Source: Halanaerobium praevalens DSM 2228
GTDB lineage: Bacteria > Bacillota > Halanaerobiia > Halanaerobiales > Halanaerobiaceae
Assembly (NCBI RefSeq): GCF_000165465.1
Contig: NC_017455.1
Location: forward strand, 310,001 to 374,000
Reading direction: 5' to 3'
DNA: 64,000 bases
The notes beneath the pieces were generated by a model, which worked only from the letters and a program-made list of their open reading frames with translations, made no database searches and was not told the DNA's origin. The position numbers and the translations under genes are program-made. Shown piece by piece: positions 9,209 through 30,895 of the stretch (position 1 is its first letter; the number at the start of each line of letters is the position of its first letter).

Positions 9209-9237
9209 TTGCTTTTACTAACTTATTATGATACAAT
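9209..9237 (+). promoter_or_regulatory. Promoter of the eutS-eutW transcript
   Basis: TTGCTT (9209-9214), a 17-base spacer and TACAAT (9232-9237) lie just upstream of the hairpin leader. Transcription would start near 9245. The remaining part of the intergenic stretch on the minus side (9100-9208) shows no convincing consensus promoter. Confidence 0.65.
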
Positions 9238-9260
9238 TTTTCTAAGAAAAATGAATAGTA

Positions 9261-9350
9261 GATTGCACAATGGAGTGTGATCATAACTAATAAGCAAAGA
9301 AGCTTGTAGAAAAGGGATATTTATGTCCTTTTTATACAGGCTTTTACTAT
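9261..9350 (+). promoter_or_regulatory. EutV (ANTAR) antitermination leader of eutS
   Basis: Two hairpins with six-base loops precede a terminator. Hairpin P1 is GATTGCAC (9261-9268), loop AATGGA, GTGTGATC (9275-9282). Hairpin P2 is ATAAGC (9290-9295), loop AAAGAA, GCTTGT (9302-9307). Both loops have A at position 1 and G at position 4, the known recognition features of ANTAR-domain antiterminators such as EutV. The 3' arm of P2 is also the 5' arm of a 16-bp terminator, GCTTGTAGAAAAGGGA (9302-9317) with TCCTTTTTATACAGGC (9326-9341), one mismatch, then TTTTACTATTTTTT. Binding of EutV to P1-P2 would therefore prevent the terminator. The identification rests on structure drawn by eye. Confidence 0.85.
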
Positions 9351-9385: not shown

Positions 9386-9748
9386 ATGGGAGAAAAAGAA
9401 GAAGTTGTAGAAAAACAAAGGATAATTCAGGAATTTGTACCTGGAAAACAGGTGACTTTAGCACATATAATTGCTAATCCCCAAGAAGGGATTTATCAGA
9501 AATTAGGTTTAGTTGATCAGGTAAATGATGCAATAGGAATTTTGACTATTACTCCCAGTGAAGCTTCAATTATTGCAGCCGATGTTGCCACAAAGGCAGC
9601 GGGTATCGAAATAGGCTTTATAGACCGTTTCAGTGGTTCTTTAGTAATTACTGGAGATGTAGCAAGTGTTGAATCATCAGTTAAAGAAATTATGAATATT
9701 TTACAGAATATATTAGATTTTACTCCAGCTAAAATTACTCGAACATAA
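9386..9748 (+). CDS. eutS: EutS/PduU-type circularly permuted BMC shell protein
   Basis: The 120-residue product begins with the extended N-terminus [21 protein letters not shown], which forms the beta barrel cap of EutS/PduU. A BMC domain with permuted order follows ([31 protein letters not shown]). It forms hexameric tiles of the ethanolamine microcompartment shell. A longer frame opens at 9323, but that ATG sits in the loop of the leader terminator. The ATG at 9386 has GGAGG seven bases upstream and matches the family's N-terminus. It is first of the eutS-P-V-W operon and is controlled by the leader at 9261-9350. Confidence 0.93.
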
Positions 9749-9766: not shown

Positions 9767-10195
9767 ATGAAAAAAGCAATGTTGATTGGAAAAAGTGGTA
9801 GTGGAAAAACTACCTTAATTCAGCTTTTAAGTTCGGAAAAAATAAGGTATAATAAAACACAGGCAATGGAATATTATCCAGAATTTATTGATACACCTGG
9901 TGAATACATTGAAAGTAGGCGTTATTATAATGCTATTATTTCTTCAGTAGACCAATGTGAAAACATGGTTTTAGTTCAAGCAGCTACTGATCATGATAGT
10001 GTTTTTCCGCCGAATTTTGCTAAAACTTTTAATCAAAATATTTTGGGTGTAATAACTAAAATAGATAAAGATTCTGCCCAAATAGAACAAGCAGAAAAAA
10101 TTCTGCAAAGAGCAGGAGTTAATAAAATTTTCAAAATTAGCTCTATCACAAAAGAAGGCTTAGCAGAATTAAAAAAGTATTTAAAAATAAAATGA
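9767..10195 (+). CDS. eutP: EutP/PduV-like small GTPase
   Basis: The 142-residue protein has the GTPase/P-loop motif GKSGSGKTT near residue 8, a DTPGE G3 motif near 43 and TKID as G4 near 104. It has the size and order of EutP, an accessory nucleotide-binding protein of ethanolamine operons; some family members act as acetate kinase, and others are linked to microcompartment positioning. It follows eutS by 18 bases and precedes eutV. Confidence 0.88.
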   Translation: MKKAMLIGKSGSGKTTLIQLLSSEKIRYNKTQAMEYYPEFIDTPGEYIESRRYYNAIISSVDQCENMVLVQAATDHDSVFPPNFAKTFNQNILGVITKIDKDSAQIEQAEKILQRAGVNKIFKISSITKEGLAELKKYLKIK

Positions 10196-10218: not shown

Positions 10219-10803
10219 ATGGGAAAGAAAATAGTAATAGCCGATGATGAACCTATTACTATCATGGATATCTCAGAGATTTTGACTGAGGAAGGTTACA
10301 ATGTGGTAGCTGAAGTCTCAGATGGTTTTGATGCTATTGAAGCTTGTCGTCAGCACAAACCTGATCTTGCTCTACTTGACATTAAAATGCCACTTTTAAG
10401 TGGGATTAAGGCAGCTAGGATTATTAAAGAAGAAGAATTAGCTGAAACAATAGTTTTTTTAACTGCCTATAGTAACAAAGATTTTATCAGTCAGGCAAAA
10501 GAGGTAGGTATAATGGGTTATTTAGTTAAGCCTGTAGATAAAGCAAGCTTATTACCTGTAATAGAACTTGCCATTGCTAAAGGCGAAGAAATGGTAGATA
10601 TTAAAGAAAATATTAAAGTTTTAAAAAGTAAATTAGAAAAAAGAAAATTAATCAGCAGAGCTAAAGGGATTTTAATGGATTCTGAAGGCCTCTCGGAAGA
10701 AGCAGCTTATAATAAAATTCGGAAATTAAGTATGGATAAAAGATGTTCAATGAAGGAGATAGCTCATGTAATTATTATTAACAATAATTGCCTGGGTAAT
10801 TAG
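10219..10803 (+). CDS. eutV: EutV response regulator with ANTAR RNA-binding output domain
   Basis: The receiver domain (residues 1-120) has acidic residues D9-D10, phospho-acceptor D54 in LALLDIKMPL and the conserved lysine in GYLVKPVD. The C-terminal part (about 135-190) is an ANTAR domain, with SRAKGILMDSEGLSEEAAYN and RCSMKEIAHVII. Phosphorylated EutV dimerises and binds paired hexaloop hairpins to stop terminator formation; candidate targets are the leaders at 9261 and 12251. A GTG at 10201 lies within an AGGTGAGAAAGGGGAAG ribosome-binding stretch, so ATG 10219 is chosen. The sensor kinase gene starts two bases after the stop. Confidence 0.93.
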   Translation: MGKKIVIADDEPITIMDISEILTEEGYNVVAEVSDGFDAIEACRQHKPDLALLDIKMPLLSGIKAARIIKEEELAETIVFLTAYSNKDFISQAKEVGIMGYLVKPVDKASLLPVIELAIAKGEEMVDIKENIKVLKSKLEKRKLISRAKGILMDSEGLSEEAAYNKIRKLSMDKRCSMKEIAHVIIINNNCLGN

Positions 10804-10804
10804 A

Positions 10805-12223
10805 ATGCTCAGAGAACTTTGTCAAAAAGAGACCAGACTTAGTGAACAGGATATTGAACAGTTAGAAAAATTAGCTGAGCAATTACCGAGAATTGCTAAT
10901 TTAGTTAAAGCTGATGTTTTTATTGATTGTCCAATTGATGATCCAGATGCTCTTTTAGTTGTGGCTGAAGCAAAACCTCGAGGAGCAAAAGCGATTTCTA
11001 ATTATCAAGGATCTGTTGTAGGTGAGTTAGCTGTTAGAACTAATGAGCCAGCTGCTCTAAGAACAATGGAAACTGGAGTTGGAACTCGAGATTTAAAAGC
11101 TTTAACCCAAGAAAATAAAAAGGTAAAACAAAATGTAGAGCCAATTAAAAATAAGTTAGGTAAAGTAATAGGTGTTCTCATTATGGAGCGCGATATTACA
11201 GCTGATATTAAAAAGAATAAGCAGATGGAAATTTTAACTGAAACAACAGAACAACTTTCAGATTTACTTTCATTAGATGAATCTGAAGATGTGATTGCTA
11301 ATTATATTAATGATGCAATTATTATTTTTAATAGCCAAGGTTATGCTAAATATGCTAATACTGTTGCTAAAAAATTATATTCTGATTTAGGCTATAAAGA
11401 TCAAATTAAAGGAATGCATTTTAATAATTTAACCCTAGGCCAAAAACAGTTTAGAGAATTAGCAATAGAAGTGAATTCAACCGAAAGTTTTGAAGTTAGT
11501 CTTAGTGATATGATTTTAAAAGTAAATTATTCTATGATGTACGGCAAAGATAATGTTGCTGGTTTAGTTATGTTAATTAAGGATATTACTGAAGTTAAGA
11601 AAAAAGAGAAAAAGTTAGTTTTAAAATCAGTTGCTCTAGAAGAAATACATCATCGAGTAAAGAATAATCTGCAGATGATAGCTAGCTTGCTGCGTTTGCA
11701 AGCACGTCGAGTTGATAATCAAGAAGGGCGACAAGCTCTAATAGTTAGTATTAACAGGATCTTAAGTATTGCAGTTACTCATGATATACTTTCTCAAAAT
11801 GAAATAAACGAAGTCTATATTAAAAGTATTTTAAATAAAATTATTGAAAACACCGCTGCTTATTTTTTAAATGAGCATAAAAATATTGAGATCAAATTAT
11901 TAGGAGATAATTTTATTATTGATTCTGAAAAAGCAACTTCGATTGCTTTAGTAGTTAATGAACTTTTACAAAATGCTTTAAAACATGCTTTTGAAGATCA
12001 AAAAGATGGTTTGATCAAGGTTAAAATTTATCAAGGTAATAATTATTCTAATATTACAATTAGTGATAATGGTTTAGGTTTTAATATTGAAGAAGTAAAG
12101 AAAAATCGTTTAGGTTTTAAAATTGTAAAAACAATTGTTAATGATAAATTAGGTGGACATTTAGATTTAGAATCAAGTCAACAGGGAACAAAAATTGTTT
12201 TTGATTTTAAAAATGAAATTTAA
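10805..12223 (+). CDS. eutW: EutW sensor histidine kinase
   Basis: The 472-residue kinase has no membrane segment, so it senses a cytoplasmic signal. Residues 1-140 match the N-terminal sensor domain shared by EutW and PdtaS (H_kinase_N type; FIDCPIDDPDALLVVAEAKP). A PAS-like region follows (about 165-270). The HisKA_2-type phosphotransfer helix is EEIHHRVKNNLQMIASLLRLQ, with HH near residue 284. The ATPase domain has NELLQNALKHAF and DNGLGF motifs. In known systems EutW autophosphorylates with ethanolamine and passes phosphate to EutV. There is no strong ribosome-binding site before ATG 10805, so coupling to eutV translation is likely. Confidence 0.92.
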   Translation: MLRELCQKETRLSEQDIEQLEKLAEQLPRIANLVKADVFIDCPIDDPDALLVVAEAKPRGAKAISNYQGSVVGELAVRTNEPAALRTMETGVGTRDLKALTQENKKVKQNVEPIKNKLGKVIGVLIMERDITADIKKNKQMEILTETTEQLSDLLSLDESEDVIANYINDAIIIFNSQGYAKYANTVAKKLYSDLGYKDQIKGMHFNNLTLGQKQFRELAIEVNSTESFEVSLSDMILKVNYSMMYGKDNVAGLVMLIKDITEVKKKEKKLVLKSVALEEIHHRVKNNLQMIASLLRLQARRVDNQEGRQALIVSINRILSIAVTHDILSQNEINEVYIKSILNKIIENTAAYFLNEHKNIEIKLLGDNFIIDSEKATSIALVVNELLQNALKHAFEDQKDGLIKVKIYQGNNYSNITISDNGLGFNIEEVKKNRLGFKIVKTIVNDKLGGHLDLESSQQGTKIVFDFKNEI

Positions 12224-12250: not shown

Positions 12251-12340
12251 CAAAACACAATGGGGTGTTTTGCAAAGGCAATGGGGCCAGTTTAGGGATA
12301 ACTATGTTTAGATGTTATCCTAAGCTGGCCTATTTTTTAT
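12251..12340 (+). promoter_or_regulatory. EutV (ANTAR) antitermination leader of the eutA operon
   Basis: P1 is CAAAACAC (12251-12258), loop AATGGG, GTGTTTTG (12265-12272), a perfect 8-bp stem. P2 is GGC (12277-12279), loop AATGGG, GCC (12286-12288), a short stem. Both six-base loops have A1 and G4. The P2 3' arm is shared with a strong terminator: GGCCAGTTTAGGGATAAC (12285-12302) pairs with GTTATCCTAAGCTGGCC (12314-12330) and is followed by TATTTTTTAT. No promoter is visible in 12224-12250, so it may regulate read-through from eutW into eutA. Confidence 0.88.
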
Positions 12341-12379
12341 AAAAAAGTTAAAACTCTAGTTAAACTTGGAGGTGAGAAC

Positions 12380-13813
12380 TTGGATAAAATTTTAAGTGTT
12401 GGCATTGATATTGGTACCTCAACAACTCAAGTTATATTTAGTGAAATAACTTTAGAAAATATGGCTTCAGGCTTTACCGTCCCTAGAATTAATATTATTG
12501 ATAAAGAAGTTATTTATAAAAGCAATATTTATTTTACTCCCTTAATTTCTCAAACTGAAATTAATGGTGAAAAGATAAAAGAAATTGTAGAAAAAGAATT
12601 TAAAGAGGCCGGAATTGATAAAGAAAAAGTTAGTACTGGAGCTGTCATTATAACTGGTGAAACAGCCCGCAAAAAAAATGCTAGCTTAATTTCTGCACAA
12701 CTCAGTGATTTAGCTGGAGATTTTGTGGTAGCAACTGCTGGTCCAGATTTAGAATCTATTATTGCTGGTAAAGGAGCAGGAGCAGCCCAGTTATCAAAAA
12801 AAGAAAATAGAATAGTTATTAATTTTGATATAGGAGGTGGTACTACAAACATATCCGTTTTTGATTCAGGTGAGATTATTGATACAGCTTGTTTAGATAT
12901 TGGTGGTCGTTTAATTAAATTTGATCAAGATAATCAAATAATTTATGTAGCCGAAAAAATCAAAAAGTTAGCTGCTGAAATTGGGATTGAAATTAAAGAA
13001 AATACTCAATTAAAACAGTCTGATCTGAAAAAGATAACTGAAAAAATGGCAGCAATCTTAGTCGAAACAGTTGCTGCAAAAGAAAAAAGTGATCTTTATC
13101 AGTACTTAATAACTAATCACGGTTTAAGCCAGAAAATTGAGCCAGATTACATCTCATTTTCTGGAGGAGTAGCTGATTATATAGGCCAAGAAATTGAGCC
13201 AGGAGAAAACATTTTTGCTTTCAACGATATTGGTATACTTTTGGCCCAACAAATAACTCAATCTCCACTTTACCAAGATTATAAAATAGTAAAAGCAGCT
13301 GAAACAATTAGGGCAACAGTAGTTGGAGCAGGTAGTCATACCACTGATATTAGTGGTAGTACTATTACTTATAATGGAGATGTTTTCCCTCTGAAAAATG
13401 TTCCTATTATTAAAATTACAGCTAAAGAAGAAAAAGCTGACTCAGCTGAATTAATCGAGATTATTAAGAAAAAGCTGGATTGGTTTGATTTAGAATCAGA
13501 ACTACAGCCAGTTGCTCTAGCTTTAAAAGGAAAAAGCAATTTTTCTTTTAAAGAAATTACCGAATTAGCCAAAATTATAGTTAGTGGAATGGATACTATT
13601 ATTTCAAATCAACTTCCCTTAATCATTATTTTAGAAAATGATGCTGCTAAAGTTTTAGGGCAGACAATTAACCGTCTTTTAGAAAAGAAAGAAAATATTA
13701 TTTCTTTAGATGGGATTAAAGTAAATAATGGTGATTATATTGATATTGGTAAACCTTTGGCTAAAGGAAAAGTAGTGCCAGTAATAATTAAGACTTTAAT
13801 TTTTGGCAAATAA
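12380..13813 (+). CDS. eutA: EutA, ethanolamine ammonia-lyase reactivating factor
   Basis: The 477-residue product belongs to the actin/Hsp70-like ATPase superfamily. The phosphate-1 loop is VGIDIGTSTTQVIF at residues 7-20, the second loop NFDIGGGTTNISVF is near 150, and a GAGSHTTDISG motif lies near 314. EutA exchanges inactivated cobalamin in EutBC for fresh adenosylcobalamin at the cost of ATP. The start is TTG at 12380 behind GGAGGTGAGAAC. It is the first gene after the terminator-bearing leader and lies directly upstream of eutB and eutC, its target enzyme. Confidence 0.93.
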   Translation: MDKILSVGIDIGTSTTQVIFSEITLENMASGFTVPRINIIDKEVIYKSNIYFTPLISQTEINGEKIKEIVEKEFKEAGIDKEKVSTGAVIITGETARKKNASLISAQLSDLAGDFVVATAGPDLESIIAGKGAGAAQLSKKENRIVINFDIGGGTTNISVFDSGEIIDTACLDIGGRLIKFDQDNQIIYVAEKIKKLAAEIGIEIKENTQLKQSDLKKITEKMAAILVETVAAKEKSDLYQYLITNHGLSQKIEPDYISFSGGVADYIGQEIEPGENIFAFNDIGILLAQQITQSPLYQDYKIVKAAETIRATVVGAGSHTTDISGSTITYNGDVFPLKNVPIIKITAKEEKADSAELIEIIKKKLDWFDLESELQPVALALKGKSNFSFKEITELAKIIVSGMDTIISNQLPLIIILENDAAKVLGQTINRLLEKKENIISLDGIKVNNGDYIDIGKPLAKGKVVPVIIKTLIFGK

Positions 13814-13836
13814 TAAAATGAGGAGTGTTTAAGAAG

Positions 13837-15216
13837 ATGAAATTAAAATGCAAATTATTTGGCGATGTCTATCAGTTTGATAGTGTAAAGGAGGTGCTGG
13901 GTAAAGCAAACGAAATTAAATCTGGAGATCAATTAGCAGGTGTAGCAGCGGAATCTGTAACAGAAAGAATTGCAGCTAAAACTGTACTTGCAAACCTAAG
14001 TCTTTCAGATCTTCGTAATAACCCAGTTGTTCCTTATGAAGAAGATGAAGTAACTAGAATTATCCAGGATGATGTTAATGAAAGAATTTATGGTGAAATC
14101 AAAAACTGGACTGTTTCTGAATTAAGAGAATGGATTTTAAGTGATGAGGTTAATGGTAGTGATATTAGAAGAATCAGTCGTGGTTTAACAAGTGAGATGG
14201 TAGCAGCAGTAACAAAATTAATGTCTGACCTTGACTTAATTTATGGTGCTAAGAAGATAGTAGTTACAGCTCATTGTAATACTACTATTGGTAAACCAGG
14301 AACTTTATCTTTTAGATTACAGCCTAATCACCCAACAGATAATATTGATGGAATTATTCCTTCAATGATGGAAGGTTTTTCTTATGGTGCAGGAGATGCA
14401 GTTTTAGGTTTAAACCCTGTTGATGATAGTCAAAGTAGTGTTACTACTATTTTAAATAAATTTGATGAGTTTAAAAGAGAGTGGGAAATCCCAACTCAAA
14501 TATCTGTTTTAGCACATATGACAACTCAGATGAAGGCAATTAAAGCTGGAGCACCAGCTGATTTGATTTTCCAAAGTATTGCTGGTTCTGAAAAAGGAAA
14601 TGAAGCTTTTGGTGTAACTGCAGATTTAATTGAAGAAGCAAGACAGCTTGCTTTAAAAGAAGGTACTGCAACTGGTCCTAATGTAATGTATTTTGAAACA
14701 GGTCAGGGAGCAGAGCTTTCTTCAGATGCTCACTTTGGAGCAGACCAGTTAACTATGGAAGCTAGATGTTATGGTCTTGCTAAAAGATTTGATCCATTTA
14801 TTGTTAACACAGTAGTAGGATTTATTGGACCAGAATATTTATATGATGGTAAGCAAATGGTTAGAGCTGGTTTAGAAGATCACTTTATGGGTAAATTAAG
14901 TGGTATTTCAATGGGTGTAGATGTTTGCTATACAAACCACATGAAAGCAGACCAAAATGATTTAGAAAGATTAGGTGTACTCTTAGCAAATGCTGGTTGT
15001 AACTATTTAATTGGAGTACCTGTTGGTGACGATATTATGCTTAATTATCAGTCTGCTGGTTACCATGAAGCACAAGCAATTAGAGAAACTGTTGGCTTAA
15101 GACCTATCCCTGAGTTTGAAGCTTGGTTAGAAAAGATGGGAATTATGAAAAATGGTAAATTAACAGATAAAGCTGGCGATGCTTCTATATTTTTGAAAAA
15201 TGGAGAGGTGAAGTAA
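13837..15216 (+). CDS. eutB: Ethanolamine ammonia-lyase large subunit
   Basis: The 459-residue protein aligns from end to end with EutB (453 residues in E. coli, from memory). It starts MKLKCKLFGDVYQF and contains RNNPVVPYEEDEVTRIIQDD, LIYGAKK, FETGQGAELS, TMEARCYGLAKRFDPF and VGFIGPEYLY. It forms the TIM-barrel catalytic subunit that converts ethanolamine to acetaldehyde and ammonia using adenosylcobalamin radical chemistry in the microcompartment lumen. A GTG at 13825 overlaps the Shine-Dalgarno GAGGAG, and the ATG at 13837 restores the family N-terminus. Confidence 0.97.
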   Translation: MKLKCKLFGDVYQFDSVKEVLGKANEIKSGDQLAGVAAESVTERIAAKTVLANLSLSDLRNNPVVPYEEDEVTRIIQDDVNERIYGEIKNWTVSELREWILSDEVNGSDIRRISRGLTSEMVAAVTKLMSDLDLIYGAKKIVVTAHCNTTIGKPGTLSFRLQPNHPTDNIDGIIPSMMEGFSYGAGDAVLGLNPVDDSQSSVTTILNKFDEFKREWEIPTQISVLAHMTTQMKAIKAGAPADLIFQSIAGSEKGNEAFGVTADLIEEARQLALKEGTATGPNVMYFETGQGAELSSDAHFGADQLTMEARCYGLAKRFDPFIVNTVVGFIGPEYLYDGKQMVRAGLEDHFMGKLSGISMGVDVCYTNHMKADQNDLERLGVLLANAGCNYLIGVPVGDDIMLNYQSAGYHEAQAIRETVGLRPIPEFEAWLEKMGIMKNGKLTDKAGDASIFLKNGEVK

Positions 15217-16116
15217 ATGATATCTGAAAGAGATTTAAGAGATATTGTTAAAGAAGTTTTAAAAGAAGTTGGAGCAGATAATCCTAAGACAGTTGAAAAG
15301 GTAGAAAATGAAGTACAATCAGCAGTTTCAGGTACAAGTACTGAAGTAGAAAGTGGAGTTATTGCTGATATTACTGAAGTAGATTTAAAGAAGGAACTTT
15401 TAGTACCAAACCCTGCAGATGAAAAAGCAATTTTAAATCTAAAAGCTAATACTTCTGCTAGACTTGGTGTTTGGAGAACCGGACCTCGTTACAAAACTCA
15501 GACATTATTAAGATTTAGATCTGACCATGCAGCTGCAATGGATGCAGTATTTACTGATGTTTCAGATGAAATCATCGAAGAAATGGACTTATTTAGAGTT
15601 CAGACTAAGTGTCAGGATAAAGATGAGTTTTTAACTAGACCTGATTTAGGTCGTCAATTTGATGAAGAAAACTTAGCTAAGATTAAAGAAAATTGTAAAG
15701 ACAAGCCTAAAGTACAAATTTATGTAGCGGATGGTTTAAGTTCTACAGCAATTGAAGCTAATTTAAGAGATGTTTTCCCAGCAATTAAGCAGGGTCTAGA
15801 AGGTTATAACTTAGAAATTGGAACTCCTTTCTTTGTTAAATACGGTAGAGTAGCAACTATGGATGCAATTTCAGAATGCTTAGATGCTGATGTAAGTTGT
15901 GTTCTTATTGGTGAGCGCCCTGGTTTAGCAACTGCCGAAAGTATGAGCTGTTATATGGCTTATGATGCAAAAGTAGGTATGCCAGAAGCAAATAGAACAG
16001 TTATTTCTAATATTCACTCTGGTGGTACACCAGCAGTTGAAGCAGGAGCACATATTGCAGATGTTATTAAAGCTATGTTAGATCAAAAGGCAAGTGGACT
16101 TGATTTAGATATTTAA
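15217..16116 (+). CDS. eutC: Ethanolamine ammonia-lyase small subunit
   Basis: The 299-residue subunit completes the EutBC lyase and forms part of the cobalamin pocket. Family markers include [42 protein letters not shown] and [21 protein letters not shown]. The N-terminal about 20 residues form an amphipathic helix ([13 protein letters not shown]), followed by a flexible Ser/Glu-rich linker; this is the layout of an encapsulation peptide that targets cargo to the shell. The ATG directly abuts the eutB stop codon, so the two subunits are translationally coupled; GGAGAGG precedes it. Confidence 0.96.
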
Positions 16117-16136
16117 TTAAAGGAGGAAAATTAGTT

Positions 16137-16790
16137 ATGAGAAATGATCCCTTATATGGAGAAGTTTTAAGTGTTAAATTAATTCCTAATGTTAGTCCTG
16201 ATTTGAAAAAAGAATTAAAATTAAATGATGATCAGCGCAGTGTAGGTATGATTACCTGTGATATTGATGATGTTGGTTATACAGCTATTGATGAAGCAAC
16301 TAAAAAAGCAATGGTGGATGTTGTTTATGCTACCTCATTTTATGGTGGAGCAGATAATGCAAGCCAAAAATTAGCAGGTGAGTTTATCGGAATTATTGCT
16401 GGTCCTAGCCCTGCTGAAGTAAAAAGTGGTTTAAACGCAGCTGTTCAGTTTATTGAAAATGATGCTTGCTTCTATAGTGCAAATGAAGATGGAAGTATCT
16501 GCTATTATAATCACTGCGTTTCTAGAACTGGTACTTATTTATCAGAAACTGCTGGAATTCCAGAAGGCCAGGCACTTGCTTATTTAATTGCACCACCGAT
16601 TGAATCGATTTATGCTTTAGATGCTGCTTTAAAAGCAGCTAATGTTGAAATGGTAACTTTCTTTGGTCCCCCATCTGAAACAAACTTTGGTGGAGGTTTA
16701 CTAACTGGAAGTCAGTCAGCCTGTAAAGCAGCCTGTGATGCATTTGCTGCAGCAGTAAAATCTGTTGCTGATAATCCAGTAAGTTACTAA
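16137..16790 (+). CDS. eutL: EutL tandem-BMC shell protein
   Basis: The 217-residue protein has the characteristic EutL opening (MRNDPLYGEVLSVKLIPNVS) and two permuted BMC domains. EutL trimers carry a large gated pore and ethanolamine-binding small pores; it is a conserved facet protein of ethanolamine microcompartments. The motif FYSANEDGSICYYNHCVSRTG in the middle contains conserved Cys/His residues. AAAGGAGG precedes the ATG. It follows eutC by 20 bases within the operon. Confidence 0.94.
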   Translation: MRNDPLYGEVLSVKLIPNVSPDLKKELKLNDDQRSVGMITCDIDDVGYTAIDEATKKAMVDVVYATSFYGGADNASQKLAGEFIGIIAGPSPAEVKSGLNAAVQFIENDACFYSANEDGSICYYNHCVSRTGTYLSETAGIPEGQALAYLIAPPIESIYALDAALKAANVEMVTFFGPPSETNFGGGLLTGSQSACKAACDAFAAAVKSVADNPVSY

Positions 16791-16808
16791 TTATAAGGAG
16801 AGGTTAAA

Positions 16809-17474
16809 ATGAGCAATACTGCACTTGGACTAATAGAAACATATGGTTACACTGCTTCAGTAGAGGCTGCAGATGTCTGCTTAAAAGCTGCTAATGTTAG
16901 CCTTTCAGCCTGCAAAAAAGTTAGAGGTGGATTGGTTACAATTGAAATAATAGGAGATGTTGGTGCTGTTAAAGCAGCAATTGATGCTGCAGAAGCAGCA
17001 GTTCCCAGAGTTGGAAAATTAATTTCAACTCATGTAATTCCACGTCCAGCAGCAGAGCTCGATTCTATTTTAGGAGATAATAGTTTTAACTCGAAAACTG
17101 GCTCTGAGACTGAAAAAGAAGCACAAAAAGTAGAAAAGTCAGATCAAGCTGAAGTTGAAGCTGAAAATGAAGTTAAAACTGACAAAAAATCAGAAGCAAA
17201 GACTAAAGCTGAGACTAAAACTGATGCTCAGCCAGATTCTAGTTTAGAATCTAAGCAGAATAAAAAAGAAAAATCAAAGCCAAAAAAAGAAAAATCTGAG
17301 TCAAAAAAACAGCTAACTAAAAAAGAATTAAAAGAGCATAAGGTAGTTGAGCTGCGTTCTTTGGCTAGAGAAATAAAAAATATTAAACTAACTAATAAAG
17401 AAATTAAATATGCCCGTAAAAAAGAACTAATCAAAGCAATTTTAGATGCAAAAAGTAAAAGGAGTGATACTTAG
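16809..17474 (+). CDS. BMC-H shell protein with long charged linker and SAP/Rho-N-like tail (EutK-like)
   Basis: Residues 1-90 are a standard BMC-H domain ([49 protein letters not shown]). Residues about 100-170 form a low-complexity linker of alternating Glu, Lys, Ser and Thr. Residues about 172-220 form a compact helical tail, with LTKKELKEHKVVELRSLARE and ARKKELIKAILDA, that resembles SAP or Rho N-terminal nucleic-acid-binding helical modules. Enterobacterial EutK also has a BMC domain plus a C-terminal nucleic-acid-binding-type fold, but with a winged-helix character. Function of the tail is unproven. The stop codon overlaps the next gene's GTG by one base. Confidence 0.8.
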   Translation: MSNTALGLIETYGYTASVEAADVCLKAANVSLSACKKVRGGLVTIEIIGDVGAVKAAIDAAEAAVPRVGKLISTHVIPRPAAELDSILGDNSFNSKTGSETEKEAQKVEKSDQAEVEAENEVKTDKKSEAKTKAETKTDAQPDSSLESKQNKKEKSKPKKEKSESKKQLTKKELKEHKVVELRSLAREIKNIKLTNKEIKYARKKELIKAILDAKSKRSDT

Positions 17475-18943
17475 TGTTAGAAGATAGAGATTTAAAATCA
17501 ATTCAAATGGCAAGGAATTTGGTGCAAAAAGCAAAAAAGGCACAAAAAGAATTAGCAGAATATAGTCAAGAACAAATAGATAATTTAGTATCTGAGTTAG
17601 CAAAGGCAGCAGCAGCAGAAGCTCAGCCTTTAGCTGAGTTAGCAGTTAAAGATACTGGAATGGGTATAGTAGAAGATAAAGTAGAAAAAAATCTACTAGC
17701 TAGTACTGGTCTCTGGGATTATATTAAGGATATGAAAACAGTAGGTGTTGTTAGAGAAGATAGAGAAAAGAAAATTACTGAAGTAGCAAGCCCAATGGGA
17801 GTAATTGCAGCTTTAGTTCCTTCTACTAATCCAACTTCAACAACTATCTATAAATCATTAATTTCCTTAAAAGCAGCTAATGCAATTATCTTTAGTCCTC
17901 ATCCTTCTGCTCAAGAGTGTATTCAAAAAGCAGTAGATGTACTAAATAAAAAATTAGCAGAATTAGGTGCTCCAGAAGGACTAATTGGTTGCATGGATAT
18001 AGTTAGTCTTGAAGGAACAAGCGAACTAATGAGTCATGAAGATGTTTCCTTAATCTTAGCTACTGGTGGTTCAGCAATGGTTAAAGCCGCTTATAGCTCT
18101 GGAACTCCTGCTTTAGGTGTAGGTCCTGGTAACGTACCAGCCTTTATTGAAAGAAGTGCTGACCTAGATAAAGCTGTAGCAAGAATTATGCAGAGTAAAA
18201 CTTTTGATAATGGAACAATTTGTGCTTCTGAGCAGTCTGTTATAGTAGAAAGCTGCATTAAAGATGAAGTAGTTGAACTATTTAAAAAAGAAAACGCCTA
18301 CTTTCTCGATGCAGATGAGAGCAAAAAAGTTGAGGATGCTATCCAACCGGCGCACGGTGGGCTTAATGCAGCTATAGTTGGTAAATCAGCTCAAAAGATT
18401 GCTGAAATTGCAGGAATTGAGGTGCCAAGCAACTGCCGTGTTCTAATTAGTGAAACAGGTGGTGTTGGTCCTGATTATCCATTCTCTAGAGAAAAATTAG
18501 CTCCACTCTTAGGTTTCTATACAGTAGAAAACTGGGAAGAAGCGTGTGACTTATCAATGGAAATTCTAAATTATGGTGGACTTGGTCACTCTTTAGGAAT
18601 TCATAGTAAAAATGAAGAGGTTATTAGAGCTTTCTCACTTAAAAAACCTACTTCTAGAATGTTAGTTAATACTCCTACAGCTCTTGGAGCAACAGGAAAA
18701 ACTACTAACTTAGCTCCATCATTTACTTTAGGCTGTGGTTCTAAAGGTGGTAATGCTACTTCTGATAACATAACACCACTTAACTTATTTGATCGCAGAA
18801 GAATTGCTTATGGAGTTAGAGATGTAGAAACTTCTACACCTCAAACTCAAACTGCAACTTCTAATTCTAATCTTAAAGATAGTGGAGAAGAAGAATTAGA
18901 CATTATTATCGATAAGATCTTAGAAAAATTATCTCAGAAATAA
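17474..18943 (+). CDS. eutE: CoA-acylating acetaldehyde dehydrogenase
   Basis: The 489-residue aldehyde dehydrogenase has catalytic Cys near residue 250 in FDNGTICASEQS, an NAD-binding region with VPSTNPTSTTIYKSL, and a GPGNVPAFIERSADLDKA motif. These are typical of EutE/PduP enzymes, which oxidise acetaldehyde to acetyl-CoA with NAD+ inside the shell. It is about 20 residues longer than enterobacterial EutE; the C-terminus is an acidic amphipathic helix (EEELDIIIDKILEKLSQK) after a Thr/Ser linker, which looks like an encapsulation peptide. GTG is the start codon, behind AAAAGGAGTGATAC. Confidence 0.94.
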   Translation: MLEDRDLKSIQMARNLVQKAKKAQKELAEYSQEQIDNLVSELAKAAAAEAQPLAELAVKDTGMGIVEDKVEKNLLASTGLWDYIKDMKTVGVVREDREKKITEVASPMGVIAALVPSTNPTSTTIYKSLISLKAANAIIFSPHPSAQECIQKAVDVLNKKLAELGAPEGLIGCMDIVSLEGTSELMSHEDVSLILATGGSAMVKAAYSSGTPALGVGPGNVPAFIERSADLDKAVARIMQSKTFDNGTICASEQSVIVESCIKDEVVELFKKENAYFLDADESKKVEDAIQPAHGGLNAAIVGKSAQKIAEIAGIEVPSNCRVLISETGGVGPDYPFSREKLAPLLGFYTVENWEEACDLSMEILNYGGLGHSLGIHSKNEEVIRAFSLKKPTSRMLVNTPTALGATGKTTNLAPSFTLGCGSKGGNATSDNITPLNLFDRRRIAYGVRDVETSTPQTQTATSNSNLKDSGEEELDIIIDKILEKLSQK

Positions 18944-19016
18944 GCTGAATATAATTAGGTATTAACTTAGAAATAAGTCAAAAATAAATTAAAAATAAAC
19001 TTAGGAGGAATATATA

Positions 19017-19295
19017 ATGGCAAATTCAAATGCATTAGGATTAATCGAAACAAGAGGTTTAGTTGGATCAGTAGAGGCAGCAGACGCAATGGTGAAAGCA
19101 GCTAATGTTACTTTAATCGGTAAAGAGCATGTAGGTGGCGGACTTGTAACTGTTATGGTTAGAGGTGATGTTGGTGCAGTTAAAGCAGCAACAGACGCTG
19201 GTGCAGCAGCAGCAGAAAGAGTTGGAGAATTAATTTCTGTTCATGTAATTCCAAGACCACACAATGAAGTTGAAATTATTTTACCACAAAAATAA
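19017..19295 (+). CDS. eutM: EutM-type hexameric BMC-H shell protein
   Basis: This 92-residue single BMC domain is close to EutM/Pdu[57 protein letters not shown] and [14 protein letters not shown]. It forms the main hexagonal tiles of the shell; the residues near GGGLV line the small central pore for substrate passage. A strong AGGAGG lies before the ATG and a GC-rich hairpin after the stop, as expected for the most abundant protein of the operon. Its closest relative in the window is the gene at 22992-23285. Confidence 0.95.
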
Positions 19296-19305
19296 TAAAT
19301 AATAC

Positions 19306-19345
19306 TTTAGCCGGGCCAGCATTAAGTTGTTTGGCCCGGATTAAA
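19306..19345 (+). other. GC-rich intercistronic hairpin after eutM
   Basis: CCGGGCC (19311-19317) pairs with GGCCCGG (19333-19339), extended by A/T pairs outside. No T run follows on the plus strand (ATTAAAAAAGG follows), so it is probably not an efficient terminator. It may protect the eutM messenger 3' end or set lower expression of eutT onward. Confidence 0.6.
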
Positions 19346-19361
19346 AAAGGAATGATTTACT

Positions 19362-20180
19362 GTGGATTTAATAACCGAAAGTAAACTTAGAGAACTAGCT
19401 AAAAAAAGTGGTTTAGAAAATTTAGAGATCAAAGAAAACACTATTATTACACCTTCTGCTCGCCAGTATTTAAGAGATAAAAAAATAAAATTACCTGGTG
19501 AAAAGCAAAAAAAAGCAGAAGCTAGTAAAGAAAAAACTAAAAACCAGTCAGAAACAAAAACAAATGATTCAGATCAAATTAGCAAAGGTAGAGCTAAAGT
19601 TGATAAAAAGTCAGCTGATTTTAAATATCAATCATATTATTCTGGAGCTTATTTTAAAGAAAAACCAGAAGCTATGACTCAAATATTTGCTAATAAATTA
19701 GTTTACAAAGATCATCCACTTATTGAATACCGAGGTAAATTGGATAGTTTCCAATCTCAAATTTTAGAAGTGATGCTAGTAGTTGAAACAGAAGAAATTC
19801 CTGGGCTTTATCAGGACTTAGAAGAAAGCTTAGAGATTATGAGAAATGTCTTAGCAGCTGAAGTAAGAGATCAAGAATTAAAGTTAGACACTATAATCGG
19901 TCTCACAGCAGCAGAGATAAGAGCAAGATCGCATAATCCACAAAAATATTTCTCTGTTAAACATATTTTACCAAGTACAGATCTGGGGAAAATTTTAATC
20001 AAATTAAATAGTTTGCGTAGTTCTGTCCGTGAGGTAGAAATTGCAGCAGTTAAAGCTTTTAGAGATGAAAAAGGAATTAAGCGTCCAGATATTATTAAGG
20101 CTTTAAATAGGATGAGTAGTGTTTTTTATGTAATGATGTGTAAATATCAAGCTGGAAAATATAAAAAAGAGGTGATTTGA
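19362..20180 (+). CDS. eutT: EutT-type ATP:cob(I)alamin adenosyltransferase
   Basis: The 272-residue protein matches EutT in order and length: ITPSARQYLRDKKIKL near residue 30, a charged linker, a helical core with YRGKLDSFQSQILEVML, GLTAAEIRARSHNPQ, and RPDIIKALNRMSSVFYVMM near the C-terminus. It makes adenosylcobalamin for EutBC. The enterobacterial enzymes carry a His-Cys-Cys-Cys metal motif after the linker; here that segment (KYQSYYSGAYFKEKPEAM) contains no cysteine. The start is GTG behind AAGGAATGA. Its stop codon TGA overlaps the ATG of pduL. Confidence 0.9.
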   Translation: MDLITESKLRELAKKSGLENLEIKENTIITPSARQYLRDKKIKLPGEKQKKAEASKEKTKNQSETKTNDSDQISKGRAKVDKKSADFKYQSYYSGAYFKEKPEAMTQIFANKLVYKDHPLIEYRGKLDSFQSQILEVMLVVETEEIPGLYQDLEESLEIMRNVLAAEVRDQELKLDTIIGLTAAEIRARSHNPQKYFSVKHILPSTDLGKILIKLNSLRSSVREVEIAAVKAFRDEKGIKRPDIIKALNRMSSVFYVMMCKYQAGKYKKEVI

Positions 20181-20836
20181 TGGAAGAACAAGCATTAAGA
20201 AAAGAAATTAAAAACTTGATTTTAAAAATGCGTGAAGACAATCAGAAAAATTTAATTCCCATTGAGGCCTCAGGTAGACATATACATTTAAGTCAAGCAG
20301 ATGTTGAAAAATTATTTGGTGAAGGCTATCAATTAACTCCCCGCAGAGAACTTTCTCAACCAGGTCAATTTTTGGCAGAAGAGAAACTGCGTTTAATTGG
20401 ACCTAAAAGTGTAGTGAAAAATGTTGCAGTTTTAGGACCAGCTAGAAAATCAACACAGGTAGAGCTTTCTCAGACTGATGCAGTTGGTCTAGGAGTTAAA
20501 GCACCTTTAAGATTATCTGGTAATACTGAAGATACAGCCTCTCTTTTTATTGCATCTGCTAAAAATGTCGTTAAACTTGAGGAAGGTGCAATTATTGCTA
20601 AAAGACATATTCACATGACTCCAGAAGATGCAGCTAAATTAGATGTAGAAGATGGAGAAATTGTTAATGTTGAGGCATTAACAACTAGACCTGTAATTTT
20701 CAAAGATGTTTTAGTAAGGGTAAATGAAAATTATAAATTGAATATGCACTTAGATTATGATGAAGCTAATGCCTGTTTATTACAAAAAGGTGATTGTGGT
20801 AAAGTAATTAAAACAGGAAAACATGCTAATGATTGA
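20180..20836 (+). CDS. pduL: PduL-type phosphotransacylase
   Basis: The 218-residue product has two PduL beta-barrel domains with the metal-binding histidine motifs ASGRHIHLSQADVE (near residue 32) and AKRHIHMTPEDA (near 140), plus MHLDYDEANAC near the C-terminus. It exchanges CoA for phosphate to give acetyl-phosphate, recycling CoA inside the shell, and here takes the role that EutD has in enterobacteria. The N-terminal helix EIKNLILKMRE resembles an encapsulation peptide. The ATG at 20180 overlaps the eutT stop and has GAGGTG upstream; a TTG one codon earlier is less likely. Confidence 0.94.
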   Translation: MEEQALRKEIKNLILKMREDNQKNLIPIEASGRHIHLSQADVEKLFGEGYQLTPRRELSQPGQFLAEEKLRLIGPKSVVKNVAVLGPARKSTQVELSQTDAVGLGVKAPLRLSGNTEDTASLFIASAKNVVKLEEGAIIAKRHIHMTPEDAAKLDVEDGEIVNVEALTTRPVIFKDVLVRVNENYKLNMHLDYDEANACLLQKGDCGKVIKTGKHAND

Positions 20837-21662
20837 TTTAAAAAAAGTAGATGAGCTAGTAAAAAAAGTTGAAGCAAGTCGACATCAGAACCTCAATTGT
20901 GATGGTGAAAAATTAAATGCTGCCGAGCTTAAAGTAGGGGTAGACCTTGGTACAGCATATATTGGAATTGTTGTTTTAAATGCTGACAATCAACCTTTAG
21001 CTTGCGAATTAGAAGCAGCCGAAGTTGTAAGAGATGGTTTAGTTGTGGACTATATGGGAGCAATTACTATAGTTAGAAGACTAAAAGAAAAACTGGAAAA
21101 CAGACTTGGAGTAGAACTTCAACAAGCTGCTATTGCAGTTCCATCAGAAACATCTGAAGCTGATAGTAAAACTCATAAACATGTTGTAGAGGCAACAGGA
21201 ATGGAAGTTCTAAATACTTTAGATGAACCATCAGCAGCTAACTCTGTTTTAAATGTAAAAAATGGAGCAGTAGTTGATATTGGTGGTGGAACAACTGGTA
21301 TTTCCATTTTTGAAAATGGTGAGTTAGTAAAGACCGCTGATGAAGCAACAGGTGGAACTCATTTAACTTTAACTATTGCTGGTAACTATAAAATTGATTT
21401 TGCAGAAGCAGATAAATTAAAAGTAGACCCAGCCAAACAAGCAGATGTTTATTCTATTGTACTGCCAGTGCTTAATAAAATTGGGAGTATAGTAAAAGAT
21501 AAAGCAGCTGAGCATCAAGTTGAAGAATTATATCTTGTTGGAGGTACTAGCTGTTTAAAGGGAATAGAAAAAGCTATTGAATCAGAAACAGCGATTAAAA
21601 GCTTTAAACCAGAAAATCCCTTTTTAGTAACCCCACTTGGTATAGCCTTAAACTGTTTGTAA
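20829..21662 (+). CDS. eutJ: EutJ, Hsp70/actin-like chaperone
   Basis: The product is 277 residues, with the actin-like ATPase motifs VGVDLGTAYIGIVVL near residue 37, VVDIGGGTTGISIFENG near 146 and LVGGTSCLKGIEKAI near 235. EutJ is a conserved member of ethanolamine operons and is thought to assist assembly or maintenance of the lyase or compartment. The coding region overlaps the end of pduL by 8 bases. ATG 20829 is preferred over ATG 20823 because of its better spacing from CAGGAAA. Confidence 0.92.
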   Translation: MIDLKKVDELVKKVEASRHQNLNCDGEKLNAAELKVGVDLGTAYIGIVVLNADNQPLACELEAAEVVRDGLVVDYMGAITIVRRLKEKLENRLGVELQQAAIAVPSETSEADSKTHKHVVEATGMEVLNTLDEPSAANSVLNVKNGAVVDIGGGTTGISIFENGELVKTADEATGGTHLTLTIAGNYKIDFAEADKLKVDPAKQADVYSIVLPVLNKIGSIVKDKAAEHQVEELYLVGGTSCLKGIEKAIESETAIKSFKPENPFLVTPLGIALNCL

Positions 21663-21686
21663 TTTTAAAGTCGGAGGTGATTATCT

Positions 21687-22382
21687 TTGCAAAAAGAAGA
21701 GTTTATTGAAACTATTGTGAAAGAAGTTTTAAAAAAATTGAATGATCAATCTGACAACTCAAAAAATGAATTCGAGAAAGAAAAGATTTTATTAAGTCAA
21801 AAAGCAGATTTTCAATTTGCTCAGTCCTTTAGAGAAAAATATGAATTAATTGAAATAGAAGCAGAAAATGAAGTTGCTGATTTTGCAGATGTAGAAAATT
21901 TGATTATTACCCAGCTGGATCTTAAAAGCTTAATTGAACTTGCAGAATTAATTCAAGTTGAGGCTCAACTTGAATTTATAGTTAAATTTCTGTTTGAGGG
22001 TAAAAACATTTATATAATTGAAGAGGGTCTAAGTTACCGCAATTATCATGGTAATGTACCTCAAGCTTTATATGATAAATTAATTAAAGCTGAGGAAAAA
22101 TTAAAAAGTTATGGTTTTGTTTTTCTAGGCTTAAATCAATTAGCAGCTGAATTAGAAATGAAAAATGAGTCTAAAAATTCTACTCCTAATCATTTAGAAA
22201 CTAAAACACAGAGCGAATATTTTAGACTTGATAAAAAACTGATTGACTTATCTATAATTCAAAAACTTTATCAAAAAAATCATTCTAAATTTGAAATTCC
22301 CCAAAGTAGTATAGTAACCGCACTAGCAAAAGACTATATTAAAGATCAAAAAATTGAGATAGAATATATAGAAGGAAGGTAG
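21687..22382 (+). CDS. Ethanolamine-operon conserved hypothetical protein
   Basis: The 231-residue protein has no motif I can assign to a catalytic family. It resembles in size and position a conserved hypothetical family that recurs in Firmicute ethanolamine operons (TIGR02536-like, from memory). The N-terminus (EFIETIVKEVLKKLN) is an amphipathic helix like that of EutC and is followed by a polar linker, so it may be cargo targeted to the lumen. The middle region has alternating hydrophobic segments consistent with an alpha/beta fold (LIITQLDLKSLIELAELIQ; KFLFEGKNIYIIEEGL). TTG at 21687 is the start behind CGGAGGTGATTATC. Function unknown. Confidence 0.7.
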   Translation: MQKEEFIETIVKEVLKKLNDQSDNSKNEFEKEKILLSQKADFQFAQSFREKYELIEIEAENEVADFADVENLIITQLDLKSLIELAELIQVEAQLEFIVKFLFEGKNIYIIEEGLSYRNYHGNVPQALYDKLIKAEEKLKSYGFVFLGLNQLAAELEMKNESKNSTPNHLETKTQSEYFRLDKKLIDLSIIQKLYQKNHSKFEIPQSSIVTALAKDYIKDQKIEIEYIEGR

Positions 22383-22388
22383 TTTACA

Positions 22389-22676
22389 ATGATTATTGGT
22401 AAAGTAATTGGTAATGTCTGGGCAACTAGAAAAGATGAAAACTTAAATGGATTTAAGTTTATGGTAGTTGAGCCTTTGGATCACAGCAGCCGTGAAATTA
22501 ACAAATCTACTTTTGTAGCTGTTGATCAAATCGGAGCTGGAGTTGGCGAGACTGTTTTAGTTGTTAATGGTAGTTCAGCTCGCCGCAGTTTATGTCAGGG
22601 AGATCTACCAGTTGATGCTTCAATTATTGGAATTATAGACAAAGTTGAGATTAGTCCAGAATTTAAAGATGACTAA
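22389..22676 (+). CDS. eutN: EutN/CcmL-type BMC-P vertex protein
   Basis: The 95-residue protein is a single EutN/CcmL beta-barrel: IIGKVIGNVWATRKDENLNG, FMVVEPLD, VAVDQIGAGVGETVLVVNGSSARR and DASIIGIIDKVEI. Pentamers of this family cap the twelve vertices of the polyhedral shell. It is the only BMC-P gene in the window, so it must serve every vertex. It lies six bases after the preceding stop; GGAAGG precedes the ATG. Confidence 0.94.
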   Translation: MIIGKVIGNVWATRKDENLNGFKFMVVEPLDHSSREINKSTFVAVDQIGAGVGETVLVVNGSSARRSLCQGDLPVDASIIGIIDKVEISPEFKDD

Positions 22677-22717
22677 AAATTTTCTTTAGCCGAATGAAAT
22701 TAAGTGAGGGGATAAAA

Positions 22718-22978
22718 GTGGCAAAAAATTTAATTACTAAAAAAACTTTAAATAAAAAAGCTTTAGCTGAGTCATCACTGATTTATATTTTCGCAGATGA
22801 TTTAATTACCCCAGGAGCTAAAGATTTAATTCGTGAAAAAAAATTAAGATGTAAATATATAAAAAAAGAAGAACTAAAAGTAGAAATTAGAAAAATTATT
22901 GAAGAACTAACTACAGATCAGTTTAGTTCAGAAAAAAAGGAAAAAATTATAAAAAGTATTTTAGCTAAAATAATTTAA
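22718..22978 (+). CDS. Small eut-operon protein with an ITPxAxxxxREKxL motif
   Basis: The 86-residue basic protein contains [25 protein letters not shown]. This recalls the short N-terminal segment shared by EutT (here ITPSARQYLRDKKIKL) and EutQ. The C-terminus is helical ([14 protein letters not shown]) and could bind a shell or enzyme partner. GTG 22718 is preferred over ATG 22694 because GAGGGGAT lies just before it. It sits between eutN and a BMC-H gene. I do not recognise a function; it may be a reduced EutQ-like or PduM-like structural factor. Confidence 0.65.
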
Positions 22979-22991
22979 GGAGGAATTTATT

Positions 22992-23285
22992 ATGGCTTCT
23001 AGAGAAGCATTAGGAAAAGTAGAAACAAGAGGTTTGGTAGCATCAATTGAAGCAGCAGATGCAATGGTTAAAGCAGCAAATGTTACTTTAATTGGCAAAG
23101 AGTTAATTGGTAGTGGTTATGTAACAGTGATGGTTCGCGGAGATGTTGGTGCAGTTAAAGCAGCTACAGATGCAGGTGCAGCTGCAGCAGCTAATATTGG
23201 AGAGTTAGTTTCTGTACATGTTATTCCAAGACCACACACTGAACTTGACGCAATTTTACCTCAAAGCCCTGAAAGTGCTGAGTAA
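22992..23285 (+). CDS. Second EutM/PduA-type BMC-H shell protein
   Basis: The product is 97 residues, a single BMC domain very similar to the 19017-19295 protein ([63 protein letters not shown]). A visible difference is at the pore loop: IGSGYV here, in place of VGGGLV. The two paralogues could form mixed facets with different pore properties. AAGGAGG precedes the ATG. A 52-base gap with no clear hairpin separates it from eutH. Confidence 0.93.
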
Positions 23286-23337
23286 CTTTAAAAATAATTT
23301 AAATTTAAAAATACAGTAAAAAAAGGAGAAAACATAT

Positions 23338-24456
23338 ATGAGTGTAAATGAAATTATTGTCCATATTATGGTATTGTTCATGATTTTAGGTGCCTTAGAC
23401 AAAATTATCGGGAATAAATATGGTTTAGGTGCTAAATTTGATGAAGGTATAGAATCTATGGGTCCTCTGGCAGTAGCTATGGTTGGTGTAGTATCTCTAG
23501 CTCCAGTTTTAGCTAATATTTTAAGACCAATCGTTGTTCCTCTTTATTCATTTTTAGGTGCTGATCCAGCTATGTTTGCTGGTTCATTACTTGCTAATGA
23601 TATGGGTGGATATCCTCTAGCAATGGAGTTAGCACAGACTCAAGAAGCTGGCCTTTTTTCTGGTCTGATTTTAGGGGCTATGCTTGGTCCAACAATCGTT
23701 TTTACAATTCCTGTAGCTTTAGGAATTATTGATAAAAAAGATCATCAGTTTTTAGCTAAAGGTGTTTTAGCTGGGATTATTACAATTCCAATTGGTTGTT
23801 TAGTTGGTGGTTTTGTAGCAGGTTTTGATATGGGAATGATTATTAGTAATTTGCTTCCTATTATTTTAGTTTCTGCTCTAATTGCAATTGGTTTATGGAT
23901 AATGCCAGAAAAAATGATCAAAGGTTTTACCCATTTTGGTAGAGGGGTAGTAATTGTAATTACTATTGGAACAGCTGCTATTATTACTGAAACTTTAACA
24001 GGTATTGTTATTATTCCTGGTATGGCACCTGTTTGGGATGGAATTGAAATTGTAGGAAGTATAGCTATTATGTTAGCTGGAGCTTTCCCAATGGTTCATT
24101 TTATTACTAAAGTATTTAAAAAGCCTTTACTGAAAGCTGGTAAAGCTCTTGGAATGAACGAGAATGGCTCAGCCGGTATGATTGCAACTATGGCTAATGT
24201 TATTCCAATGTTTAAAATTCTAAACCAAATGGAAGATAAAGGAAAAGTATTAAACATAGCTTTTGCTGTAAGTGCTGCCTTTGTTTTTGGAGACCACTTA
24301 GGTTTTACTGCTGGGGTAAATAGAGAAATGATTTTCCCAATGATGGTTGGTAAGTTAGTAGCTGGTCTTACAGCTGTAATGCTTGCTCTTTATATTGCTA
24401 ATAAAGTCGAAGTAAATATTGAGACTGAAAGTGAAGTTTCTGAAAAAACAAATTAG
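23338..24456 (+). CDS. eutH: EutH ethanolamine permease
   Basis: The 372-residue membrane protein has about ten or more hydrophobic segments and EutH-specific text such as GAKFDEGIESMGPLAVAMVG, LLANDMGGYPLAMELA and FVFGDHLGFTAGVN. It imports ethanolamine (or facilitates ethanolamine diffusion at low pH) across the cytoplasmic membrane and supplies the microcompartment. AAAAGGAG precedes the ATG at suitable spacing. It is followed after 23 bases by pduS. Confidence 0.95.
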   Translation: MSVNEIIVHIMVLFMILGALDKIIGNKYGLGAKFDEGIESMGPLAVAMVGVVSLAPVLANILRPIVVPLYSFLGADPAMFAGSLLANDMGGYPLAMELAQTQEAGLFSGLILGAMLGPTIVFTIPVALGIIDKKDHQFLAKGVLAGIITIPIGCLVGGFVAGFDMGMIISNLLPIILVSALIAIGLWIMPEKMIKGFTHFGRGVVIVITIGTAAIITETLTGIVIIPGMAPVWDGIEIVGSIAIMLAGAFPMVHFITKVFKKPLLKAGKALGMNENGSAGMIATMANVIPMFKILNQMEDKGKVLNIAFAVSAAFVFGDHLGFTAGVNREMIFPMMVGKLVAGLTAVMLALYIANKVEVNIETESEVSEKTN

Positions 24457-24479
24457 TTTTCATAAAAGGAGTAGTTTTT

Positions 24480-26362: not shown

Positions 26363-26380
26363 GTAGGGGAGGAAGAAAAA

Positions 26381-28137: not shown

Positions 28138-28166
28138 TTGACAATTTGTTTAAATTTATTTATAAT
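28138..28166 (+). promoter_or_regulatory. Consensus promoter of the purine permease
   Basis: TTGACA (28138-28143) and TATAAT (28161-28166) are separated by exactly 17 bases. This is a perfect sigma-A consensus, about 70 bases before the riboswitch aptamer. Confidence 0.88.
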
Positions 28167-30749: not shown

Positions 30750-30806
30750 AAAAGGATTTATTATTTAAATCTTGAATAAATATATTAAAGCAAATTAAAA
30801 TTTAAT

Positions 30807-30883: not shown

Positions 30884-30895
30884 CTAAAAAAATTT

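What the first reader, a model, noticed from the sequence alone, without database searches (positions are those of the whole stretch)
12251..12340. Second EutV leader between eutW and eutA divides the locus into two regulated parts
P1 has a perfect 8-bp stem and P2 a short stem, with identical AATGGG loops; P2 overlaps a 17-bp terminator. No promoter is visible between eutW and this leader. Antitermination may therefore gate read-through from the regulator operon into the 15-kb structural operon, giving a feed-forward circuit in which EutV controls both its own operon and the structural genes.
Basis: partly seen in the sequence, partly recalled or inferred. Interest (0 to 1): 0.7.

Follow-up and report, generated by a model that had tools for sequence, protein, structure and literature searches.

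The report
Second EutV antitermination gate before eutA
Between the ethanolamine-sensing regulator genes and the ethanolamine-breakdown genes of a Halanaerobium-type bacterium lies an RNA on/off switch of a known type, which probably lets transcription run on into the breakdown genes only when the EutV regulator is active; it is a clear but ordinary example of a switch already described in Enterococcus.

Summary
At 12251-12288 lie two hairpins with AATGGG hexaloops (P1 8 bp, P2 3 bp, linker 4 nt); P2 overlaps the 5' arm of an 18-pair terminator (12284-12331, then six U). A strict dual-hairpin pattern occurs only twice in the window, here and before eutS (9261-9304), and never in random sequence. 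A covariance model built only from other bacteria ranks the site first in the whole 2.3-Mb genome. All 34 examined loci with eutW directly before eutA carry the element, P1 beginning at or near the eutW stop codon; most eutA genes in other contexts lack it. The eutS leader has a promoter conserved between two Halanaerobium species; this leader has none above chance. Gated read-through is therefore the best reading. [quoted passage not shown] 'Feed-forward' is loose wording; two gates in series plus positive autoregulation fits better. No EutX-like B12 sponge was found. New member of a known kind; nothing has been measured in this organism.

The parts
9209..9237 (+). Predicted extended -10 sigma-A promoter for leader 1 (TTGCTT-17-TACAAT, TG at 9229-9230)
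   Evidence: Weighted scan score 10.6, p 0.015; the same hexamers and spacing in H. congolense (9.1, p 0.04), at the same distance (-23) from P1
9261..9304 (+). Leader 1 dual hairpin before eutS: P1 GATTGCAC-AATGGA-GTGTGATC, P2 AGC-AAAGAA-GCT
   Evidence: Pattern hit; second-best place in own genome with R1 (30.2 bits, E 0.003) and with the hold-out model R2 (21.7 bits, E 0.15)
9298..9345 (+). Leader 1 terminator stem, overlapping P2
   Evidence: Fold of 9250-9350: -33.5 kcal/mol, z -6.15
9386..9748 (+). eutS (BMC shell protein), first gene of the regulator operon
   Evidence: BMC domain 1e-13; best NCBIfam model EutS, 120.6 bits, just under its cut-off of 123
9767..10195 (+). eutP
   Evidence: Pfam PduV-EutP 1.9e-54
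10219..10803 (+). eutV: receiver plus ANTAR response regulator, the only ANTAR protein of the genome
   Evidence: Pfam Response_reg 3.1e-27 and ANTAR 1.1e-19; one match genome-wide
10805..12223 (+). eutW: PdtaS-type GAF / HisKA_2 sensor kinase
   Evidence: Pfam GAF_PdtaS 2.4e-39, HisKA_2 6.1e-21
12251..12272 (+). Leader 2 P1 hairpin, 8-bp stem, loop AATGGG, closing pairs AC/GT
12277..12288 (+). Leader 2 P2 hairpin, 3-bp stem, loop AATGGG
12284..12339 (+). Intrinsic terminator: stem 12284-12331 (18 pairs) and U tract 12333-12338; its 5' arm overlaps P2
   Evidence: -26.1 kcal/mol
12380..13813 (+). eutA, first gene of the structural operon (TTG start, SD GGAGGTG at 12369-12375)
   Evidence: Pfam EutA 3.9e-197
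12380..27520 (+). Structural operon from eutA to an eutG-like alcohol dehydrogenase
   Evidence: Contiguous + strand genes, gaps 73 nt or less

Best explanation
The element is an ANTAR (EutV) antiterminator site that works as a promoterless gate inside an operon. Transcription starts at the promoter before eutS, passes leader 1, continues through eutS-eutP-eutV-eutW and reaches leader 2. Without active EutV the nascent RNA folds into the terminator at 12284-12339 and transcription stops before eutA. When EutW has phosphorylated EutV, the EutV dimer holds P1 and P2, P2 keeps the terminator's 5' arm occupied, and polymerase runs on into the 15-kb structural operon. The structural genes thus lie behind two EutV gates in series, and EutV also raises its own synthesis at gate 1. 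Shown here: the anatomy, the cognate ANTAR protein, the conservation and covariation of the motif, and the absence of a promoter above chance. Inferred from E. faecalis: EutV binding, antitermination, ethanolamine as the signal. Inferred only: that read-through is the main source of the structural transcript.
For: Dual hexaloops with A1/G4, AC/GT closing pairs and terminator overlap. A model without Halanaerobium ranks the site first in its genome. All 34 examined loci with eutW directly before eutA, this one included, carry it: 25 score with model R2, 13 of them not used to build it, the rest were read directly. A terminator overlapping P2 is found in 20 of 20 diverse loci. P1 begins 0-32 nt after the eutW stop in most and straddles the stop in Listeria-type loci and L048. 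98.6% of cells are paired, 29 with changes on both sides, above all 500 shuffles. Promoter score significant at leader 1 in two species, not at leader 2; among 18 eutW-eutA junctions of other bacteria and Halanaerobium 1 reaches p < 0.05, about what chance gives. A further site lies upstream of eutVW in 11 of 15 such loci. Published E. faecalis eutA site and mechanism (PMC3369931; PMC5821096). F. nucleatum expression splits at eutA (PMC11796344).
Against: No RNA data for this organism. The promoter scan uses an approximate weight matrix from memory, covers sigma-A only, and AT-rich sequence can hold weak starts. In H. congolense the first base of loop 1 is G, not A, a position whose A-to-U change lowered induction in E. 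faecalis. The P1-P2 linker is 4 nt, shorter than the natural 5-12 nt range in E. faecalis, although P1 is longer here. The hold-out score of leader 1 genome-wide is marginal (E 0.15).
Confidence: 0.78

Rival explanations
1. The leader is a true EutV site but is fed by its own, undetected promoter in the 3' end of eutW, so the structural operon is a separately initiated unit in parallel with the regulator operon.
For: Three of the four E. faecalis sites have constitutive promoters (PMC5821096); the eutV-eutA type locus L039 has TTGCAA-17-TATAAT before its eutA leader; the 27 nt between eutW and P1 are AT-rich.
Against: Best score before leader 2 is below the random mean (2.9 against 4.8, p 0.85); the best candidate in H. 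congolense is a different sequence at a different place; in most eutW-eutA loci P1 abuts or overlaps the eutW stop, leaving little or no intergenic room.
Confidence: 0.2
2. The hairpins and terminator are an unregulated attenuator that only lowers structural gene expression relative to the regulators.
For: The terminator is strong (-26 kcal/mol), and no binding or expression data exist for this species.
Against: P1 and the loop bases have no role in plain attenuation, yet they are conserved across Bacillota with covarying stems and are nearly restricted to eutA genes that follow eutV/eutW.
Confidence: 0.02

Closest known systems
E. faecalis eutA leader (one of four EutV-controlled terminators: eutP, eutG, eutS, eutA; PMC3369931, PMC5821096)
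   Same: Site directly before eutA, two hexaloop hairpins with A1/G4, P2 overlapping the terminator, eutVW in the same locus; three of the four E. faecalis sites are reported with promoters (the text read here does not say which one lacks it).
   Different: Here the regulator operon is eutS-eutP-eutV-eutW with one upstream site, and no AdoCbl riboswitch lies in the locus.
eutW-eutA junctions of Lactobacillales and Listeria-type loci (L014, L044-L072)
   Same: Dual hairpin and terminator directly after eutW in every examined case.
   Different: Most of those loci have an upstream gate before eutG and an AdoCbl riboswitch.
F. nucleatum eut locus (PMC11796344)
   Same: Expression boundary lies at eutA: eutS, P, V, W flat or down with ethanolamine, genes from eutA on strongly up, EutV-dependent.
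   Different: The RNA site there was not tested, and the regulator genes are not induced.
EutX / Rli55 sponge RNA (described in PMC5821096)
   Same: Uses the same dual hairpin to hold EutV.
   Different: Its EutV site is not tied to a terminator and follows a B12 riboswitch; nothing like it was found in this genome.

Membership tests
ANTAR (EutV) dual-hairpin antiterminator | Two hairpins with hexanucleotide loops, A at position 1 and G at position 4 | tested here: met
   Both loops AATGGG
ANTAR (EutV) dual-hairpin antiterminator | P1 closing pairs A-U, C-G (AC...GU), sequence-specific in E. faecalis | tested here: met
   CAAAACAC-AATGGG-GTGTTTTG; AC/GT invariant in all 20 aligned leaders
ANTAR (EutV) dual-hairpin antiterminator | Linker between P1 and P2 in the working range (5-12 nt natural in E. 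faecalis; 3 and 14 fail) | tested here: inconclusive
   4 nt counted from the 8-bp stem, 8 nt if only 4 bp of P1 are counted; the published counts depend on stem length
ANTAR (EutV) dual-hairpin antiterminator | P2 overlaps the 5' arm of an intrinsic terminator | tested here: met
   P2 12277-12288, terminator 12284-12331
ANTAR (EutV) dual-hairpin antiterminator | Cognate ANTAR response regulator in the genome | tested here: met
   eutV 1.4 kb upstream, the only ANTAR protein of the genome
ANTAR (EutV) dual-hairpin antiterminator | Phospho-EutV binds and relieves termination | not testable with these tools
   Needs EMSA, in vitro transcription or a reporter
EutX-type B12 sponge | Cobalamin riboswitch followed by a dual hairpin | tested here: not met
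   Six cobalamin riboswitches, none with a dual hairpin within 1.5 kb

The most novel reading that the evidence does not exclude
The whole 15-kb structural operon has no promoter of its own and is transcribed only through two successive EutV antitermination events from the eutS promoter, so that leak and induction multiply; this serial, autoregulated gate is the conserved design of eutV-eutW-eutA loci across Bacillota, and here it works without a EutX-type B12 sponge.
Probability: 0.5. Interest if true: 0.35.

Novelty: new member of a known kind. Interest (0 to 1): 0.24.

Why it matters
It extends the EutV switch to Halanaerobium. The comparison also shows that the eutW-eutA junction is a fixed place for a gate that starts at, or even inside, the end of eutW. 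That makes a simple question testable: are catabolic operons put behind two copies of the same RNA switch in series so that leakiness multiplies down? It also gives a clean case of an ANTAR eut system without a visible B12 sponge, the same gap that is noted for Clostridium (PMC5821096).

Tried and rejected
Rfam at gathering scores gives no match at either leader. Lower-scoring genome matches of the model (L078, L080) were read at the DNA level: no dual hairpin with terminator is evident, and their scores sit at the chance level. A EutX-like element was sought at all six cobalamin riboswitches and not found. The key E. faecalis promoter paper (Baker and Perego 2011) is not held, so which E. faecalis site lacks a promoter was not checked. 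Fusobacterial loci could not be reached with the genome tool, so the F. nucleatum eutA leader was not read.

Full report
What is there. Between the stop codon of eutW (12221-12223) and the TTG start of eutA (12380) lie two hairpins and a terminator. P1 is CAAAACAC-AATGGG-GTGTTTTG (12251-12272), P2 is GGC-AATGGG-GCC (12277-12288), and the terminator stem runs from 12284 to 12331, followed by six U. Folding 12251-12288 gives exactly P1 and P2. Folding on to 12340 replaces P2 by the terminator, at -34.9 kcal/mol against a shuffled mean of -18.6. P2 and the terminator exclude each other, as in the described ANTAR mechanism.

Is it more than chance. A strict pattern (hexaloops with A/G at position 1 and G at position 4, C-G closing, P2 closed by GC/GC, limited linker) hits the window twice, here and before eutS, and not once in 40 random 64-kb sequences with the window's dinucleotide frequencies. 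A covariance model from 20 leaders finds only these two strong places in the genome. Because that model contains the Halanaerobium sequences, a second model was built without them: it still ranks leader 2 first in 2.3 Mb (34.5 bits, E 2e-4). Leader 1 comes second at 21.7 bits, which is marginal on its own (E 0.15), with the next place at 19.3 bits. Stems covary: 98.6% of cells are paired and 29 show changes on both sides, more than in any of 500 shuffles; sliding the partners abolishes this. The alignment was made from hairpins picked by eye, so the percentage paired leans towards the structure; the count of changes on both sides is the better evidence.

The regulator. eutV has receiver and ANTAR domains, eutW a PdtaS-type GAF domain and a HisKA_2 kinase. 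EutV is the only ANTAR protein of the genome, so it is the natural partner of both leaders.

Comparison. EutA loci were collected from 398 genomes of the phylum and about 320 of three orders. In every examined locus with eutW directly before eutA (34 with this one, many of them close Listeria-type relatives) the same element is present: 25 were scored with model R2, 13 of which had not been used to build it, and the others were read directly. In 20 diverse ones a terminator overlapping P2 was found in all 20. P1 starts 0-32 nt after the eutW stop in most, and straddles it in Listeria-type loci and L048. Loci in which eutV lies next to eutA (order W-V-A) also carry it in at least four of six cases. 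Of 22 eutA loci in other contexts only L029 has a convincing match. Thus the leader goes with the EutV system, not with eutA as such. In 11 of 15 extended loci a further site (E 0.1 or better) lies upstream of eutVW, and L088 has the same eutS-eutP-eutV-eutW order as here.

Promoters. The eutS leader has TTGCTT-17-TACAAT with an extended -10, at the same spacing from P1 in H. congolense, although the sequence further upstream differs. Before leader 2 the best score is below the random mean, and the best candidate in H. congolense lies elsewhere. Over 18 eutW-eutA junctions 1 reaches p < 0.05, about what chance gives. This fits supply by read-through. It does not prove it: the matrix is approximate and covers sigma-A only.

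Mechanism. Published work on E. faecalis shows that EutV binds such dual hairpins, that the loop bases, stems and linker matter, and that phosphorylation drives dimerisation and binding (PMC3369931). The same paper names a site before eutA, and a review says that three of the four sites have constitutive promoters (PMC5821096). In Fusobacterium nucleatum the expression boundary lies at eutA and depends on EutV (PMC11796344). By analogy, leader 2 here most likely stops polymerase before eutA unless phosphorylated EutV holds P1 and P2. If leader 2 is fed only from the eutS promoter, the structural genes stand behind two EutV gates in series, and EutV raises its own level at the first. I would not call that feed-forward; it is serial gating with positive autoregulation.

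B12. The genome has six cobalamin riboswitches, none in the window and none with a dual hairpin nearby. Most of the extended comparison loci do have an AdoCbl riboswitch. A EutX-like sponge is therefore not seen here, as reported for Clostridium loci (PMC5821096).

Organism. The closest named relative is H. congolense (EutA 95%), and the size of 2,309,262 bases suggests H. praevalens DSM 2228; that last step is from memory. A 2023 paper reports eutBC in H. congolense and H. praevalens, untested for growth on ethanolamine (PMC10536098). EutW occurs in 2 of 12 genomes of the genus.

Verdict. No literature on ANTAR control in Halanaerobium was found in the held library.

Noticed in passing
L005:4470-4491; also L038, L058 and the P2 of Listeria-type L055: Loop position 1 is G instead of A in several natural leaders, including the H. 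congolense version of this one; published mutants tested A to U only, so a purine may be enough.
   Followed up: partly
window:19296-19361: A G+C-rich hairpin (CCGGGCCA...TGGCCCGG) without a U tract between a BMC shell gene and the cobalamin adenosyltransferase gene, inside the structural operon; perhaps a processing or stabilising element.
   Followed up: no
window:12248-12275 (- strand): P1 followed by a T-rich stretch on the minus strand looks like a weak terminator for antisense transcription into eutW.
   Followed up: no
window:8539-9108 (- strand): A PduT-like two-domain BMC shell gene lies divergent to the eutS leader, outside both regulated units; the H. congolense locus has a different sequence upstream of the leader.
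   Followed up: no
window:28221-28320 and 30802-30898: Purine and TPP riboswitches downstream of the eut locus; a perfect sigma-A consensus (TTGACA-17-TATAAT) lies at 28138-28166, before the purine riboswitch.
   Followed up: no
window:22694-22978: A 94-aa protein with weak similarity only to the EutT N-terminus; no Pfam match.
   Followed up: partly
L029:1350-1391: A dual hairpin before eutA in a G+C-rich genome, where no eutV or eutW was detected within the 1.5 kb upstream.
   Followed up: no
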